Assembly: GCF_024362525.1 (NCBI RefSeq)
Contig: NZ_CP101458.1
Location: 2,542,001-2,606,000 of the forward strand
Origin: Natrononativus amylolyticus
GTDB taxonomy: Archaea; Halobacteriota; Halobacteria; Halobacteriales; Natrialbaceae
DNA: 64,000 nucleotides
Direction of reading: 5' to 3'
Within the stretch, counting starts at the first letter, position 1, and each line of letters begins with the position of its first letter. Below are positions 16,472-22,426 of this stretch, piece by piece. The notes beneath the pieces were generated by a model that did not search any database, had not been told where the DNA came from, and saw only the letters and a list, made by a program, of their open reading frames with translations. The translations under genes and the position numbers were made by a program.

Positions 16472-17227
16472 ATGGATCTCCGCGTACAGGGGCCGGGGCC
16501 GACCGCGCCCTTTCTCGGGGCTCGAGACCTCTTCGAAACCGAGTACGAGCTCTCCCTGCCCGTCCACGTTCAGCTCCGGGAGGACCCCGACGAGCGAACC
16601 TGGGCCGCCCACTACGACGACCGGCACGTCCTCAACATCTCGAGGCAAGCCGCCTCGAGCGCCCTCGCTCGCGAACTCGCCCTCCACGAGTTCTCCCACA
16701 TGGCCCGCCACGAGGAGAGCCACCCCTCACACGTCCAGTCGACCGAGGAGGTGCTCTACCTCGCGCTGGCCGGAAAGACCGTCGAACGCCGAAAACTGGC
16801 CCACTGCTACCAGATCGCTAACCACATGAAGGACATCTACGCCGACGACATCACCCTCGCGGTGGGTCCCGGCGAGAAACTGCTCGCGTTCCTCGAGTCC
16901 TCGCTGGCCGCCGCGGTCGCCGACCGGCCGACGGCGCCGTCGGGGCCGAACGTCACGCGCATCTCACCCGGCGCCGATCCGGAGATCACGGCCGTCAACG
17001 CCGCCTTCGCGCTCGCGCTCGCCGAGCGACACGACCTGCTCGCGGCCGATCACCGGCTGTACGACCTCGCCCACGCCGCCAGCGAGGACGCCCCTGGCGT
17101 CGACTTCGAGGGCTTTCGCGAGCGGTTTCGGGAGCTGACGCGGGAACCGGACTCGAGTTCCTACCGACAGGTGCTGGTGGACGCGACGCGGGCGTACGTA
17201 GACGCCGACGGCCGGGCGGCCGACTGA
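16472..17227 (+). CDS. DUF5781-like putative zinc metalloprotease
   Basis: A 251-residue protein starting at ATG 16472 ([10 protein letters not shown]). [12 protein letters not shown] contains an HExxH-like motif written HEFSH, with [22 protein letters not shown] downstream as candidate third ligand region. No signal or membrane segment. I place it with the haloarchaeal DUF5781 proteins, which neighbour EF-2. Function unknown: a cytosolic peptidase is plausible, but the motif alone does not prove activity. It is divergent from fusA and converges on rpsG. Confidence 0.72.
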
Positions 17228-17371
17228 ACCGATCCGCGCGAGCGGCCACCCGACACCGTCGGCGGGGTCGGTCGCCGAGGCGCCGTCCGCGACTCGAGCG
17301 CGAAGAGGGGGACCGGTCGGTAGCCGGATCGCAGAGAGCAATCGAAAAGTCGCGAACGGCGAGTCGAACCG

Positions 17372-17980
17372 TTAGCGGGCAGCAGCCGCGACGCGCTCTT
17401 TCTCTTCTTTCTGGCTGATCGCGTACGTCTGGACGTCGTAGTTGGCCGCGCCGATGAGCTGGTTGGCGATGGCCTCGGGGACGGAGGTCGGCGTCTTGAA
17501 CGACGCGCTCTTGACGCCCTCGGCGATGAACTTAAGCGCCTGGTCGACACGCCGCTGCGGGGCGACGTCGACGGCCTTCGGGACCGAAATGCCACCGTAC
17601 TTCAGGCGGACGGTCTCCTCCCGGGGGGCGGCGTTCTCGACGGCCGTGACGAGCACCTGTGCCGGGTTCTCCTCGGTGCGCTCGTGGATGAGGTCGAACG
17701 CCTCGCGGACGTGGTTCAGGTTCTGCTGTTTCTTGCCCGTGTTCTCCTCGGTCTGCATCAGCCGGTTGATGAACCGCTCGACGACCGAAACCTCGGACTT
17801 CTGGAACTGCTTGCCGGCGTGACGACCCGCGGTGTGGGCAACCGGGGTCACCGCCAGGTACCGCTCCGTCGAGGGGTCGTTGTAGGCGATCTCGGAGACG
17901 TCCCACTTGCCGAACAGCTTCGCGGTGAGGTCGCCGCCGCCGGCGGGGGCGTCGGGGTCGGGTTGGTCTTCTGCAGCCAT
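17372..17980 (-). CDS. rpsG: 30S ribosomal protein S7 (uS7)
   Basis: A 202-residue protein. After an acidic N-terminal extension (MAAEDQPDPDAPAGGGD), KLFGKWDVSEIAYNDPSTER and the core NRLMQTEENTGKKQQ, EENPAQVLVTAVENAAPREE and VPKAVDVAPQRRVDQALKF are archaeal S7 signatures. It binds the 3' major domain of 16S rRNA. The gene follows rpsL after 2 bp, so the two are cotranscribed. Confidence 0.98.
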   Translation of the reverse strand: MAAEDQPDPDAPAGGGDLTAKLFGKWDVSEIAYNDPSTERYLAVTPVAHTAGRHAGKQFQKSEVSVVERFINRLMQTEENTGKKQQNLNHVREAFDLIHERTEENPAQVLVTAVENAAPREETVRLKYGGISVPKAVDVAPQRRVDQALKFIAEGVKSASFKTPTSVPEAIANQLIGAANYDVQTYAISQKEEKERVAAAAR

Positions 17981-17982
17981 GG

Positions 17983-18411
17983 TTATCGCACCGGTTTCTC
18001 CGCGTTGCCGCGAACGAGTTCGAGCAGCGCGACGCCGTTGACCTTGTCGACCTTGTAGTTGACGCCGGAGAGGTCACCCATCGCACGACCCTTCGCCCCA
18101 CCGATCCCCGCGATGGTGACTTCGTCGTGCTCGTCGATGAACGAAATCGCACCGTCACCGGGACAGAAGGCGGTGACCTGCTTGCCGTTCTTGATGAGCT
18201 GGACCCGGACGCACTTCCGGATCGCCGAGTTGGGCTGTTTCGCCTCGATGCCCACCTTTTCGAGTACGATACCTCGAGCCTGCGGGGCGCCCTCGAGGGG
18301 GTCTGACTTCTCGCGGAGGCCCCGTGCGCGGCGCGCGTAGTCGGAGTCGGACCACCGCTGTTGCTGGCGGTCCTTCTTGAGCTTGCGCGCGGCGTACTTG
18401 CCGTTTGCCAT
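17983..18411 (-). CDS. rpsL: 30S ribosomal protein S12 (uS12)
   Basis: A 142-residue protein starting at ATG 18411 ([13 protein letters not shown]). [15 protein letters not shown], the decoding-centre loop, and the C-terminal [12 protein letters not shown] identify uS12. A further in-frame ATG at 18444 would add 11 residues not seen in the family. Upstream on the minus strand GTGCTTAAGTG (near 18440) is a likely TATA element about 25 bp before the start, so the rpsL-rpsG pair has its own promoter and does not rely on readthrough from the rpo operon, from which it is cut off by the 18.7-22 kb insertion. Confidence 0.98.
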
Positions 18412-18666
18412 GCACGTCGCTATCCGACGGAGGCACTTAAGCACCCCGTTTCGGAGTTCCGCGTTACGCCTCGAGAGCGCCGGACGGGGGGCAACGAAGG
18501 AATCTGAGGGCGTTTCGTCCCTCGAGGGTAGCTCTCGTCGAACGAGGGGACAGACGTCCTACGGCCGTCGCTCCGGACCGACGGCCGATAGCCCGGGGCG
18601 CCTCCGTCGACGGGTCGAGTACCCGTGCGCCGGTTCTTGTTAGCTATCCCGACGGTAACTACCGAA

Positions 18667-18678
18667 AATAACTTATGA
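18667..18678 (+). promoter_or_regulatory. Putative TATA box of the TRAP-permease operon
   Basis: AATAACTTATGA lies about 26-30 bp before the ATG at 18703, within an AT-rich patch in GC-rich surroundings. It predicts transcription start near 18700. Confidence 0.45.
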
Positions 18679-18702
18679 ATTGGATATAGAGGTAATGTTA
18701 CT

Positions 18703-18807
18703 ATGCGATCCAGAGGCTATGAAGCGGTCCCGATCGGTGCCGCGGACGGCCGAGAGCGACCGGACCGTCCGATCGACGGTCCGGTAAACGGCGGTGTCCG
18801 AGTATGA
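18703..18807 (+). CDS. Possible 34-aa leader ORF of the TRAP permease gene
   Basis: ATG 18703 opens a 34-codon frame (begins MRSRGYEAVPIG, ends GGVRV) whose TGA overlaps the permease ATG as ATGA at 18804-18807, the same coupling seen elsewhere in the window. The TATA-like element predicts a transcript beginning almost at this ATG, so it would be read as a leaderless ORF. The product has no recognised domain. It may serve translation coupling only, or be chance. Confidence 0.4.
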   Translation: MRSRGYEAVPIGAADGRERPDRPIDGPVNGGVRV

Positions 18808-21083
18808 CCGAACCCCCGGCGCCAGAGGAAGTGAGAAACCCGTCCAGATCGGCGGTGTACGGGCTCGGAACGGTCGTGTCCGTCGGGGCGATCCTGCTCT
18901 GGGTCGTCGTGCTCACCGAAGGGACCGGTGGACGGCACGGCACCTACGTCCGCGCCTTGTTCGGGCTGGTGCTCGTCGGTTTCGCTTTCACGGCGTCTCG
19001 ACGAGCACTGAGTCCGGACTCGAGAGCCGAGATCGCGACCCGCCTCGCCCTGACGACCGGGGTTCTCGTCGGCGCGGTCCTGCTCTGGGCGGCGGTCGTC
19101 TCGGGCGTCAACGGTCCGCAGCCGAGGACACAGTTGGCCGTCCTCGTTCTCGGACTGGTGCTCGCCGTCTACGCCGTCGAAGAGATCCGGCGAGCCGTCG
19201 AAACCGACGCGCGGTCGACCGCCGTCGTCATGGTCGGCGTCGCAGCCGCACTGGTCGCCGCCACGTGGTACTTCTATCGAAACGCGCTCGACCTTCTCGG
19301 TCGGGGAGATGTGTCGACAGTCGGAGGCGTTTCCGCCGCGCTGGTCGTCCTCGTCGTGTGTTACGTCGTCTGGCGGGAGATCGGACCGGTACCCGTTCTG
19401 GCACTCGCCGTAACGGTCGCGTACGCGTTGCTCGGCGGGTGGTTCCCGGAACTGCTCGGCCACGGGGGGATCGGAATCGAACGGGTATTCCTGATTCTGG
19501 CCGCCGGGTTGGACGGCGTGTACGGCTTCCTGACCCAGCAGGCGGCCCTGATCATCGCGGCGCCGGTGCTCTACGTCTCGCTCGTCTACGCCTACGGCGG
19601 GTTTCGGGTGATCCGAACCGCTGCCGTTCGGGCGTCCCGGTCCCGGCGCGCGGGATACGTCGTGACGACGACGCTCTCCGCCGCGGCGATCGGTTCCGTC
19701 AGCGGCGCGTACCTCGCGAACGCGGACCTGACCGGCGGCCACACCGTCTCGAATCTGCGAGATCGCGGCGTCCCGGCGCGAATCGCCGCGGGCGTCGAGG
19801 CCGCGGCGTCGACCGCCGGACAGGTGTTGCCCGTGCCCGTCGTCCTCGCTGCCGGCGGCTTCCTCCTCGGAGAGCGACCCCCGCATCGCGAGGTAGTGCT
19901 CGCCGGCCTGGTACCGGCTGCGGTGCTGGTGGCCTGCCTGCTCGTCGGCGTGCTTCTGGTGACCAGAACGAGTGCGACACCGGAATCGACGGGCGCGACG
20001 TCGAAATTTACGACCCCGAACGAGGGAGTGCCTCGGACGCTATCCCGTGCAGGCGCGGTCGGGGAAACGATCCGCCTCGGCGCGCCGCTCTTGCTGTTCG
20101 GCTACCTGGTCGCCGACCAGCGGCCGCTGTCGTTCGCCTTCGCCGCGGCGGTCGTCGCGCTGCTGACCCTGGGGATCGCCACCCCCGTCTTCGAAGCTGT
20201 CTACCGGTCGGCGACGGGCGAATCGTGGTTCCGCGACGGGCGCGAACCCACCGCGGAGACGCAGCGGGATAGAGCCGCCGGGACGACCGTCGAGGGGGTC
20301 GGAGCGCGGCTCGAGCGAGCCGCGACGATCGCCGCCCGATTCCGTCCGACCGCGGCGCTTTCGCGGGCGCTCGAGGAGACTGTCAGCGGATTGCGAACCG
20401 GAGCGCTCGTTCTCGCGCCCCTGATAGCCGTCCTCGCCGTACTCAACGGCGTGATCGATCTGCTGCAGGCCGTGAATGTGTTCGCCACCGCGGCCGATTC
20501 GCTGGATGCGCTCGGGCAGGGCGGGCCGTTCGCGATCGTCGCGCTCGCCCTGGCGGCCTCGCTCGTGCTCGCCGCGGGCCTCCCCACGGTCGGAGCGGTC
20601 GTCGTCGGCGGACTGTTCACGAGCGTCTTGGTCGCGAGCTACGGAGCCGACCCCCTCACGGTCTTCTACGTGGCCCTCTACGCCGCGCTCGCGGCGGGCG
20701 TCGCCCCGCCGGTCGCCGCCGCGGCCGTCCGGACCGCACGGATCGCCGACGCGAACACGTGGGCGGTCTCGAAAGTCGCGACGGGGCTCCTCGCTCCCCT
20801 GTTCGTCCTTCCCTTCGCGTTCGTCGCGCATCCGGAACTCGTCTCGACGACCCTCGACCTCGCCACGCTCCGCGCGGGTTCCCTGGCGTTGCTCGGCGGG
20901 TTCGGGATGGTATACGCGTTGTGTGCATCCTTCGATGGCGTCGCTCGCTACGAGTCCCTCCGCCGGCTCGTCCTCGTCGCCGCCGGCGCCGTGGCGATCG
21001 CGCACCCGACGGTCGCGATCCAGGTCGCAGCCGGCGTCGTCGTTCTCGGGGTCAGCGGCCCGATAGTTCGAGAAGCAGGATGA
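18804..21083 (+). CDS. TRAP-type fused permease, divergent (DctQM-like)
   Basis: A 759-residue polytopic membrane protein with well over a dozen hydrophobic segments. The block LTQQAALIIAAPVLYVSL, then AAIGSVSGAYLANADLTG, then IAAGVEAAASTAGQVLPVP follows the order seen in fused 4TM/12TM TRAP permeases, including the small-residue turn and the EA.AST.GQ.LP motif. A charged loop at about 390-520 separates the halves. TRAP systems import organic acids with Na+ or H+ and a periplasmic-type binding protein; no TAXI/DctP-like gene is next to it, so it is an orphan. It lies between rpsL and nusA on the opposite strand, where most archaea have no gene. Confidence 0.75.
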   Translation: MTEPPAPEEVRNPSRSAVYGLGTVVSVGAILLWVVVLTEGTGGRHGTYVRALFGLVLVGFAFTASRRALSPDSRAEIATRLALTTGVLVGAVLLWAAVVSGVNGPQPRTQLAVLVLGLVLAVYAVEEIRRAVETDARSTAVVMVGVAAALVAATWYFYRNALDLLGRGDVSTVGGVSAALVVLVVCYVVWREIGPVPVLALAVTVAYALLGGWFPELLGHGGIGIERVFLILAAGLDGVYGFLTQQAALIIAAPVLYVSLVYAYGGFRVIRTAAVRASRSRRAGYVVTTTLSAAAIGSVSGAYLANADLTGGHTVSNLRDRGVPARIAAGVEAAASTAGQVLPVPVVLAAGGFLLGERPPHREVVLAGLVPAAVLVACLLVGVLLVTRTSATPESTGATSKFTTPNEGVPRTLSRAGAVGETIRLGAPLLLFGYLVADQRPLSFAFAAAVVALLTLGIATPVFEAVYRSATGESWFRDGREPTAETQRDRAAGTTVEGVGARLERAATIAARFRPTAALSRALEETVSGLRTGALVLAPLIAVLAVLNGVIDLLQAVNVFATAADSLDALGQGGPFAIVALALAASLVLAAGLPTVGAVVVGGLFTSVLVASYGADPLTVFYVALYAALAAGVAPPVAAAAVRTARIADANTWAVSKVATGLLAPLFVLPFAFVAHPELVSTTLDLATLRAGSLALLGGFGMVYALCASFDGVARYESLRRLVLVAAGAVAIAHPTVAIQVAAGVVVLGVSGPIVREAG

Positions 21084-21180
21084 AGACGGCCGCTGCTCGC
21101 CCGTCACGAGTACCCGTTCCAGGCGCGACCGGCACCGCCACGTTTCGGCTGTCGAAGTCACGAGCAGTATTGACAGAAAG

Positions 21181-21191
21181 GTATACTATAC
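21181..21191 (+). promoter_or_regulatory. TATA box of the lipoprotein-like gene
   Basis: GTATACTATAC is about 25 bp ahead of the GTG at 21212 and supports that codon as a leaderless start. Confidence 0.5.
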
Positions 21192-21211
21192 TACGATTGC
21201 GATTGTTCCAG

Positions 21212-21976
21212 GTGAAGCGAAGAGCCGTCCTCGCGGGGTGTTCGGATCCGAGTACGACGATTCGACTCGAGGCTCACTCCCCGGAGGCCGTAGGCACCCC
21301 GGTCGACGGCGGCCGGGACTGGTCCATCTCGTTCGATCTCGAGTACGAACTGACCGGTTTGAACGAGACCGATGGCCTCTACGGGGTCGGGTCGTTTCTG
21401 GTCGACAGCGACGGGAACGTCCTCGAGCGCATCGAACACGGAGATCTAGCGTGGAACGCGCTCGCCGCGGACGAACGAGAGACGACCGAATCGGAGGACG
21501 GATTCGAGTTCTATCGCGGAACGGTCCGCGAGACGGTGTCGGCGGCGACCGACCGACCGCCACGCTGGATCGTGTTCACCGCCGATCGCGCGGACGGTGC
21601 GCGGTCTAGCGTGAGGGTGTACGGCCTCGCCGTCGACGACGCGCTCGAGTTACCGTCGATAGACGGCGACTGTGAACGCGTGATCGCCGACCGTGAGGAG
21701 ATCGAAATCACCGACGATGACTGGGACCAGATTAGACTCGGCCGCTATACGTCGTTCCCGCCGACCGACGAGATTCCGTCCGAAGAAACGGAGGCAGATG
21801 CTGCGAAAGCGACGACAGAAGCAACTGTCGTGAACGATACAACGAACGAGACCACAGACGGCGCATCGAACCGATCGAAGACGCGAGACGCAGTCCCGGA
21901 AGGCGGCTGTGCTTCGGACAACGAGACGACGGCCACGGACAACAAGACACCAGCGAACGCGTCGGCCGAAGACTAA
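21212..21976 (+). CDS. Lipoprotein-like protein of unknown function with truncated signal
   Basis: A 254-residue product from GTG 21212, beginning MKRRAVLAGCSDPSTTIRLE. LAGC followed by SDP looks like a lipobox and twin-arginine-type start, but only four residues (AVLA) separate the arginines from the cysteine, so the hydrophobic core seems deleted. Residues about 15-170 are beta-rich (WSISFDLEYELTGL, GVGSFLVDSDGNVL), and the rest is a Thr/Asn/Glu-rich low-complexity tail typical of haloarchaeal surface proteins. No family is recognised. It follows the permease by 128 bp with its own TATA box; it is not an obvious TRAP substrate-binding protein. Confidence 0.65.
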   Translation: MKRRAVLAGCSDPSTTIRLEAHSPEAVGTPVDGGRDWSISFDLEYELTGLNETDGLYGVGSFLVDSDGNVLERIEHGDLAWNALAADERETTESEDGFEFYRGTVRETVSAATDRPPRWIVFTADRADGARSSVRVYGLAVDDALELPSIDGDCERVIADREEIEITDDDWDQIRLGRYTSFPPTDEIPSEETEADAAKATTEATVVNDTTNETTDGASNRSKTRDAVPEGGCASDNETTATDNKTPANASAED

Positions 21977-22006
21977 CGACGAATCCGCGGTCGGTAGCGG
22001 GGACGA

Positions 22007-22426
22007 TCAAAGCAACTGTACGTCGTCGATCTCGAAGTGCCGGCGCGCGAGCGTTCGGGCGGCCTCGATCGTCCGGCCGTCGGTGCCGATAGCGACGCCG
22101 CGATCCTCGTCTGCGACCTCGACGTAGGCGACGGTGTCCTCGTTCTCGCTGATCGTGACGTTGTACACCGCCGCCGGCGCAAACGCGTTCGCGACGAACT
22201 CCTCGGCCCGTTCGGCGTGTTCGATCAGCCGAACCGGCTTCCCGACGCGCTCTTCGAACCGCTGTACGTGCTGTCCATGCGACCCGATCGCCTCGCCCAT
22301 CTCCCCTCGAGCGACGACGACGAGGAGCCGGTCCCCGTCGATCACGCAGTCCCGACCGCTCGCGCCCGTGATCTCCTCGAGGGTCGCGAGGTACCGCCGG
22401 GCGTCGTCCGAGAGGGTGACGACCAT
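22007..22426 (-). CDS. nusA: NusA-like KH-domain transcription factor
   Basis: A 139-residue protein with two KH domains only: ARGEMGEAIGSHGQHVQRFEE (first) and EDRGVAIGTDGRTIEAARTL (second), each with a GxxG loop. Archaeal NusA lacks the N-terminal and S1 domains of the bacterial factor and is thought to bind RNA during termination or antitermination. It starts directly after the rpoA2 stop (no gap) and is the last gene of the rpo operon here. Confidence 0.95.
   Translation of the reverse strand: MVVTLSDDARRYLATLEEITGASGRDCVIDGDRLLVVVARGEMGEAIGSHGQHVQRFEERVGKPVRLIEHAERAEEFVANAFAPAAVYNVTISENEDTVAYVEVADEDRGVAIGTDGRTIEAARTLARRHFEIDDVQLL

What the first reader, a model, noticed from the sequence alone, without database searches (positions are those of the whole stretch)
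18703..21976. Transporter and lipoprotein genes wedged between nusA and rpsL
The order rpoH-B''-B'-A'-A''-nusA-rpsL-rpsG with EF-2 nearby is among the most conserved in archaea. Here 3.3 kb on the opposite strand, coding for an orphan TRAP-type permease and an unusual lipoprotein-like gene, splits it. rpsL has evidently gained or kept its own promoter. The event shows that the operon can tolerate disruption.
Basis: partly seen in the sequence, partly recalled or inferred. Interest (0 to 1): 0.55.

Follow-up and report, generated by a model that had tools for sequence, protein, structure and literature searches.

The report
Variable gene slot between nusA and rpsL
The two extra genes sit at a boundary between transcription units where many related salt-loving archaea carry different genes, because rpsL has its own conserved promoter there; it is a recurrent event, not a unique break of an operon.

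Summary
Between nusA (22007-22426, -) and rpsL (17983-18411, -) lie a diverged TRAP-type permease (18804-21083, +), with a plausible promoter of its own, and a lipoprotein-like gene (21212-21976, +).

"A disrupted operon" is the wrong frame. Of 136 junction loci fetched (121 from this family), 125 (112) contain rpsL. In those 112 the nusA-rpsL gap is 71 to 10,111 bp, over 700 bp in 61, and cargo differs between and within genera (aldehyde dehydrogenase, FMN oxidoreductase, molybdoenzyme set, CetZ, transducers and others). Measured gaps inside the flanking units are at most 110 bp. rpsL has a TATA/BRE-like promoter 30-33 nt before its ATG in 125 of 125 junctions, compact or split, so it was kept, not gained.

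The lipoprotein family was found in three other genomes, of one genus, always at this junction. The permease at this junction is private. The nearest relative on the tree has a 166-bp junction without the genes. The window's lipoprotein lacks 30 nt, in frame, that encode its signal-peptide core in relatives.

The downstream edge of rpsG is at least as variable: this is a transcription-unit-boundary effect, not a dedicated integration site.

The parts
17372..17980 (-). rpsG (S7), 202 aa; 2 bp from rpsL
   Evidence: homologues 71-88% identical in the loci
17983..18411 (-). rpsL (S12), 142 aa
   Evidence: PF00164 165.4 bits; homologues 90-99% identical in the loci
18435..18453 (-). rpsL core promoter (predicted): CGAAAC (BRE-like) and CTTAAGT (TATA-like), 30 nt before the ATG
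   Evidence: YTTAAGT at 30-33 nt in 125 of 125 junctions; position in the window; haloarchaeal BRE CGAAA and TATA TTWT from passages of PMC4983044, from which TTAA departs in its last base
18454..18518 (-). conserved sequence upstream of the rpsL promoter, still shared with relative G020; function unknown
   Evidence: homology with G020 begins 107 nt before the rpsL ATG; relaxed motif in 92 of 125 junctions
18519..22001 (.). inserted or replaced stretch relative to G020 (about 3.5 kb here against about 49 bp there)
   Evidence: blastn of junctions
18663..18676 (+). candidate promoter of the permease unit: CGAAAA and TTAT, 30 nt before ATG 18703
   Evidence: the CGAAA-spacer-TTWT pattern occurs 3.9e-5 times per base in the window, both strands; consensus in PMC4983044
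18703..18807 (+). 34-aa ORF whose stop overlaps the permease start (ATGA); possible leader or coupled ORF
   Evidence: coding status untested
18804..21083 (+). diverged TRAP-type (DctM-domain) fused permease, 759 aa, about 15 hydrophobic segments
   Evidence: PF06808 E 3e-16; TIGR02123 below cut-off; 70 of 129 columns invariant in 15 homologue rows kept
21212..21976 (+). lipoprotein-like gene, 254 aa from GTG; keeps RR and lipobox Cys but lacks the hydrophobic core of its signal peptide
22007..22426 (-). nusA (archaeal NusA-like), 139 aa; stop 30 bp from the lipoprotein stop, convergent
   Evidence: TIGR01952 168.7 bits
22427..23614 (-). rpoA'', abutting nusA

Best explanation
nusA|rpsL in this family is a boundary between two transcription units: the RNA polymerase genes with nusA, and rpsL-rpsG with its own proximal promoter. 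DNA between the nusA stop and about -60 to -110 of rpsL is under little constraint, so genes are repeatedly gained, swapped and lost there, on either strand, without harm to the essential genes. The window shows one such state. The lipoprotein gene belongs to a cargo family of this junction shared with another genus. A diverged TRAP-type permease unit with its own promoter is found at this junction in this genome only. Exchange most likely goes by homologous recombination anchored in the conserved flanks rather than by a site-specific integrase. Shown: variable cargo, universal promoter-like box, sharp breakpoints at the nusA stop and the rpsL promoter block. Inferred: the recombination mechanism, actual transcription, and that the truncated lipoprotein is no longer exported.
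For: Gap nusA-rpsL over 700 bp in 61 of 112 family junctions. Internal gaps: rpoA''|nusA at most 110 bp in 111 and rpsL|rpsG at most 41 bp in 111; rpo-internal gaps at most 91 bp in 9 to 14 loci. YTTAAGT box in 125 of 125. At least 46 changes of cargo state (29 states) and 29 changes empty/occupied on a 125-row tree. Close pair G118/G119: flanks 95.3% and 97.8% identical, but 174 bp in one against 2,814 bp in the other between the nusA stop and rpsL -66. G020, the row beside the window's on the tree, has a 166-bp junction without genes. Lipoprotein family in 3 of 390 other class genomes, in each between nusA and rpsL. No tRNA gene there and only a weak 21-nt, 76% pair near the insert's ends among the 20 of 27 repeat families shown.
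Against: The rpsG downstream gap is over 700 bp in 71 of 96 loci, so nusA|rpsL is not special among boundaries. Transcription was not measured; nusA-rpsL read-through may persist. The rpsL box TTAA departs from the TTWT consensus. In 9 of 121 family loci rpsL was not found in the fetched stretch, so a long junction and relocation cannot be told apart; 10 family loci gave no rpoA'' match in the 200 bp held upstream. Genes were called by a home-made ORF scorer. The grouping with G020 has SH-aLRT 90 only, and the row of highest identity is G015 (86%), whose junction holds an FMN-dehydrogenase gene.
Confidence: 0.82

Rival explanations
1. One reading: one recent, unusual insertion broke a rigid operon, and rpsL then gained a promoter.
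For: The permease is found at this junction in this genome alone of the 136 loci, and G020 lacks both genes.
Against: 61 of 112 family junctions exceed 700 bp with varied cargo; the rpsL box is also in all 58 junctions of 500 bp or less.
Confidence: 0.05
2. The lipoprotein (and perhaps other cargo) is ancestral at this junction and was lost many times by vertical descent; little exchange took place.
For: The c0 and c2 trees mostly group by genus: c0 needs 8 changes of genus label, the least possible, and starred branches do not rule out that g8 is one clade. c14 has the same orientation in G000, G094, G104 and G108. Cassette identity between genera G130 and G109 (88.9%) equals that of their rpsL-rpsG side (89.4%).
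Against: c14 of G000 is closer to G094 (53.6%) than G094 is to its congeners G104 and G108 (44.2%, 43.1%). The G130 (g2) cassette is as close to that of G109 (g8) as G109 is to congener G107 (88.9 against 86.4%), while nusA is 76.5% (g2-g8) against 83.7% within g8. c14 was found in only four of 391 genomes.
Confidence: 0.3
3. An integrating mobile element uses this junction as a specific site.
For: IS200/IS605-type genes occur at the junction of G007 and downstream of nusA in G062.
Against: Breakpoints vary (rpsL -66, -107); no tRNA and no strong bounding repeat; neither gene of the window's insert matches a recombinase family.
Confidence: 0.05
4. Assembly error or chimera.
For: None found; reads were not available.
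Against: The junction lies inside a 2.98-Mb contig; the lipoprotein family sits at the same junction in three other genomes.
Confidence: 0.01

Closest known systems
Insertions between rpoBC and str operons in Gammaproteobacteria (tusDCB, event P29; PMC8046335, passages)
   Same: The corresponding boundary (RNA polymerase genes | rpsL; the correspondence is my inference) opened by gene insertion between operons.
   Different: There it was traced to one event in the ancestor of a deep clade, after which the pairs often separated fully; here many different cargoes change within genera.
Split of the archaeal str/L30e cluster at nusA | S12 in part of the Asgard genomes (PMC10833476, passages)
   Same: The cluster breaks at the same joint, with S12-S7 kept together.
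   Different: There the halves lie in different regions of the genome; here they lie within about 10 kb in 112 of 121 family loci, with cargo between in about half of those.
Gene gain inside haloarchaeal operon-like structures (PMC7760734, passages: 86 insertions of 946 single-type changes)
   Same: Gene gain in or next to haloarchaeal operons.
   Different: Insertions inside units are the rarer class there; here turnover is frequent, fitting a unit boundary. 'nusA' and 'RNA polymerase' do not occur in its main text.
TRAP-type fused permease (TIGR02123 / PF06808)
   Same: DctM domain, fused length, many hydrophobic segments.
   Different: Below the TIGR02123 cut-off, 59 of 129 columns invariant in homologues changed (many conservatively), no binding protein beside it.

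Membership tests
TRAP transporter fused permease (TIGR02123/PF06808) | DctM domain above curated cut-off | tested here: met
   PF06808 59.6 bits against 23.8
TRAP transporter fused permease (TIGR02123/PF06808) | TIGR02123 above curated cut-off | tested here: not met
   157.6 bits against 320.65; the permease beside the TAXI pair of the same genome scores 531.6
TRAP transporter fused permease (TIGR02123/PF06808) | TAXI-type binding protein encoded alongside | tested here: not met
   TIGR02122 matches of the genome lie at C1 71.6-73.8 kb, 0.77 Mb and 1.63 Mb, not here; the neighbour gene matches no family
TRAP transporter fused permease (TIGR02123/PF06808) | transport activity | not testable with these tools
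   needs uptake assay
Haloarchaeal Tat lipoprotein (definition recalled) | twin arginine and lipobox Cys | tested here: met
   VKRRAVLAGC
Haloarchaeal Tat lipoprotein (definition recalled) | hydrophobic core between RR and Cys | tested here: not met
   10 residues present in G104 are absent, a 30-nt in-frame difference between two GCGGGG copies as seen in G104; G094 and G108 also keep the core
Recurrent variable-cargo locus | conserved flanks with different cargo in many genomes | tested here: met
   27 gene-bearing states, 58 empty and 3 gene-less longer junctions among 125; flanks
Recurrent variable-cargo locus | more variable than other unit boundaries | tested here: not met
   rpsG downstream gap over 700 bp in 71 of 96
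Integrative mobile element site | integrase plus att repeats or tRNA | tested here: not met
   window's insert only: no recombinase family among its two proteins, no strong bounding repeat, no tRNA

The most novel reading that the evidence does not exclude
The nusA|rpsL joint of haloarchaea is an active exchange port: near-invariant flanks (rpsL above all) guide homologous recombination that swaps whole cargo cassettes, even between genera, so essential transcription and translation genes act as the homology arms for accessory genes, including metabolic operons and injection-system effector arrays.
Probability: 0.3. Interest if true: 0.6.

Novelty: new member of a known kind. Interest (0 to 1): 0.4.

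Why it matters
It corrects the idea that the archaeal RNA polymerase/S12-S7 cluster is uniformly rigid. It is rigid inside its units and open at the joint, at the same joint where part of the Asgard clusters split and, by analogy, where bacterial rpoBC and str operons were separated. It offers a simple rule (own proximal promoter plus unit boundary means a tolerated insertion), and family-wide material with empty and filled sites in close relatives to test whether conserved flanks guide exchange of accessory genes.

Tried and rejected
Structure of the lipoprotein: a single-sequence prediction gave pLDDT 33.8 and was not used. Solved structures: no match for the permease at E up to 0.01. RNA hairpin or covarying dyad upstream of rpsL: arms pair strongly in the two f5 genomes only; over 125 genomes the own partner ranks 0.565 against partners of other groups, and the mean fold z is -0.8 (mono-nucleotide shuffles, 42 sequences), so no general hairpin is claimed. 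Two TAXI binding-protein genes elsewhere in the genome as partners of the permease: dropped, because a TIGR02123 permease lies beside them. Searches for a paper on this junction: none of the rows listed is about it by title or abstract start (searches list only the top rows of what matched). The 1989 paper on halobacterial RNA polymerase gene transcription was seen only as a reference.

Rows left out: 4 of 125 family genomes had no nusA match at 1e-25. 9 of 121 family loci and 2 of 15 loci of other families had no rpsL in the fetched stretch and are not in the gap counts, the promoter count or the tree; one of the 9 (G011) lies at a contig end. 3 of 18 other-family genomes with a nusA match were not fetched. 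The class searches drew 391 genomes from a larger group and scored only the best candidates of each. In one search two of the 15 homologue rows are the same gene (L006 and L034).
Full report
What is there. The window is bases 2542001-2606000 of a 2.98-Mb contig. On the - strand rpoA'', nusA, rpsL and rpsG are in order, with 3.6 kb between nusA and rpsL. That stretch holds a 759-aa permease (18804-21083, +) and a lipoprotein-like gene (21212-21976, +). The permease matches PF06808 above its cut-off and TIGR02123 below it. In an alignment with 15 homologue rows (two of them the same gene) it keeps 70 of the 129 columns invariant in them; many of the 59 changes are conservative. It is a strongly diverged member. 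A CGAAAA...TTAT pair lies 30 nt before ATG 18703, the start of a 34-aa ORF that overlaps the permease start. That fits the haloarchaeal BRE/TATA consensus and the preference for leaderless transcripts reported in PMC4983044 (passages). A promoter of the lipoprotein gene was not tested.

Where else the genes occur. The permease was sought in 61 genomes, 125 family genomes (E up to 1e-70) and 391 class genomes (E up to 1e-90), the window's own included in each. The best-scoring matches in other genomes are about 36% identical over 670 residues; partial matches reach 46% over shorter stretches. Of the 136 junction loci only the window's own holds it. The lipoprotein family was found in 3 of 390 other class genomes (G094, G104, G108; one genus, g8). 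In these three it lies between nusA and rpsL in the same orientation. Identity is 53.6, 45.6 and 43.5% to the window's copy, while the g8 copies are 43.1 to 56.5% identical to each other. The window's copy is therefore as close to g8 copies as these are among themselves, which hints at exchange, though four sequences do not prove it.

The shortened signal peptide. The homologues begin MRRRTVMAGVVGTLPLLSGC (G094), MNRRTVIAGVVATVPLLSGC (G108) and MKRRRVIAGIVTTTPLFAGC (G104). The window has VKRRAVLAGC. G104 DNA carries two GCGGGG hexamers 30 nt apart and the window has one, as expected of a deletion between short repeats. The reading frame is kept. Export of this copy is doubtful (inference).

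The junction across the family. nusA was found in 121 of 125 family genomes. I took the downstream stretch of these 121 (the window's own included) and of 15 genomes of other families. rpsL was found downstream on the same strand in 125 of the 136, of which 112 are in the family. In those 112 the gap has quartiles 235, 1038 and 2845 bp and a maximum of 10,111; 63 exceed 500 bp and 61 exceed 700 bp. My ORF scorer and clustering gave 27 gene-bearing states, 58 empty junctions and 3 longer ones without a called gene among the 125. Pfam identifies representatives: aldehyde dehydrogenase with a V4R-like neighbour (just below cut-off), FMN-dependent dehydrogenase, a molybdopterin oxidoreductase set, CetZ, chemotaxis transducer with binding protein, PAP2, PQQ repeats, a BAT/HTH_10 regulator, DAO, and eCIS_core, Pvc16 and AAA proteins. 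Named examples: Halobiforma nitratireducens and Halopiger goleimassiliensis carry the aldehyde dehydrogenase pair, the latter also the binding protein and transducer. Natrinema ejinorense has the Pvc16/AAA/eCIS_core set after nusA with no rpsL in the 8 kb held; N. hispanicum has a Pvc16-like gene only. Natronorubrum texcoconense is compact, 188 bp.

Is the variability confined to boundaries? Gaps rpoA''|nusA (111 family loci) and rpsL|rpsG (111) are at most 110 and 41 bp (with other gene starts, gives at most 80 for the second). Gaps within the rpo genes are at most 91 bp in 9 to 14 loci. Against a special status of nusA|rpsL: the gap between rpsG and the conserved DUF5781 gene (16472-17227 in the window) exceeds 700 bp in 71 of 96 loci. 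The rule suggested is that unit boundaries are open, with rpsL-rpsG a small conserved block between two open edges. I did not measure boundaries elsewhere in these genomes.

Why rpsL survives. YTTAAGT begins 30 to 33 nt before the rpsL ATG in 125 of 125 junctions, 58 of them 500 bp or shorter. The seven letters 13 to 7 nt before it contain AAA in the 124 cases listed, most often TCGAAAC (54). The density of the motif in the same loci would give 0.00085 per 16-position slot. I chose the motif after seeing the sequences, the genomes are related, and TTAA is not the TTWT of the consensus, so this is a description, not a blind test. It shows that the box is old and does not depend on the insert. 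Homology with G020 (166 bp, no gene) runs from nusA to a few bases past its stop and resumes 107 nt before rpsL: about 49 bp there stand against about 3.5 kb here.

History. On a tree of nusA+rpsL+rpsG DNA (125 rows, quick method, 33 of 122 inner branches weak) cargo content, 29 states, needs at least 46 changes and empty/occupied at least 29. Direction cannot be read from this. G020 (g21) groups with the window's row at SH-aLRT 90 and is nearest by path; the row of highest identity is G015 (g16), whose junction holds the FMN-dehydrogenase gene. The close pair G118/G119 has flanks 95.3% and 97.8% identical, yet 174 bp in one correspond to 2,814 bp in the other, with breaks at the nusA stop and 66 nt before rpsL. 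Between genera, the cassette of G130 (g2) is 88.9% identical to that of G109 (g8), against 86.4% between G109 and congener G107, while nusA is 76.5% against 83.7%; but the rpsL-rpsG side of G130 and G109 is 89.4% too, and they pair in the cassette gene tree at SH-aLRT 88 only. That tree groups g26 and g28 by genus; g8 is split, but not by starred branches. Replacement within a genus is well shown by G118/G119; exchange between genera is a weak hint, and descent with loss is not excluded.

Comparison with print. Part of the Asgard genomes split the archaeal cluster between nusA and S12 (PMC10833476, passages). Gammaproteobacteria inserted tusDCB between rpoBC and str (PMC8046335, passages). In 76 haloarchaea insertions made up 86 of 946 single-type changes of operon-like structures (PMC7760734, outline and passages). 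I found no paper on this junction in the rows listed; only open-licence papers are held, and some of these lists were cut.

Verdict. As an event it is ordinary for this clade; as a pattern it is a clear, quantified case of recurrent cargo turnover at a housekeeping boundary.

Noticed in passing
L154:4080-15395; L052; L059; L063; L019:8499-14250 (Natrinema ejinorense): Downstream of nusA in genus g8 genomes and in the named Natrinema ejinorense locus: a Pvc16-like gene, an AAA ATPase gene and ORFs of the eCIS_core/DUF4157 cluster (six called in L154; one representative tested in Pfam) alternating with c4 ORFs (five in L154; no Pfam match for the representative), like an array of injection-system effectors. 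PMC11566945 (passages) reports DUF4157 proteins in the secretome of a haloarchaeal system.
   Followed up: partly
window 18454-18518 (-): Conserved block upstream of the rpsL promoter (GAAACGCnCTCAGAT type; relaxed motif in 92 of 125). In the two f5 genomes it forms a long inverted repeat; no general covariation.
   Followed up: partly
window 18703-18807 (+): 34-aa ORF with stop overlapping the permease start codon; possible leader or coupled ORF.
   Followed up: no
L031:7697-8158: Second, partial rpoA''/nusA-like copy with an internal TAG in G108, just before the lipoprotein gene.
   Followed up: no
L044:9408-10954; L130:8597-10461: IS200/IS605-type genes: TnpA (Y1_Tnp in L130; the L044 copy by clustering) and TnpB-like (TNB domain in both) at the nusA-rpsL junction of G007 and downstream of nusA in G062.
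   Followed up: partly
nusA of G016, G018, G019, G022, G023, G025: NusA matches are split at about residues 18-49 of the query, consistent with an insertion in the N-terminal part in several genera.
   Followed up: no
window 17228-17371: The edge between rpsG and the DUF5781 gene is at least as variable across the family as nusA|rpsL: over 700 bp in 71 of 96 loci.
   Followed up: partly
L056, L065, L145, L147, L149: A four-gene molybdopterin oxidoreductase set (c10, c9, c8, c6) lies downstream of nusA in five genomes of three genera (g8, g13, g24); in L065 and L145 rpsL was not reached.
   Followed up: no
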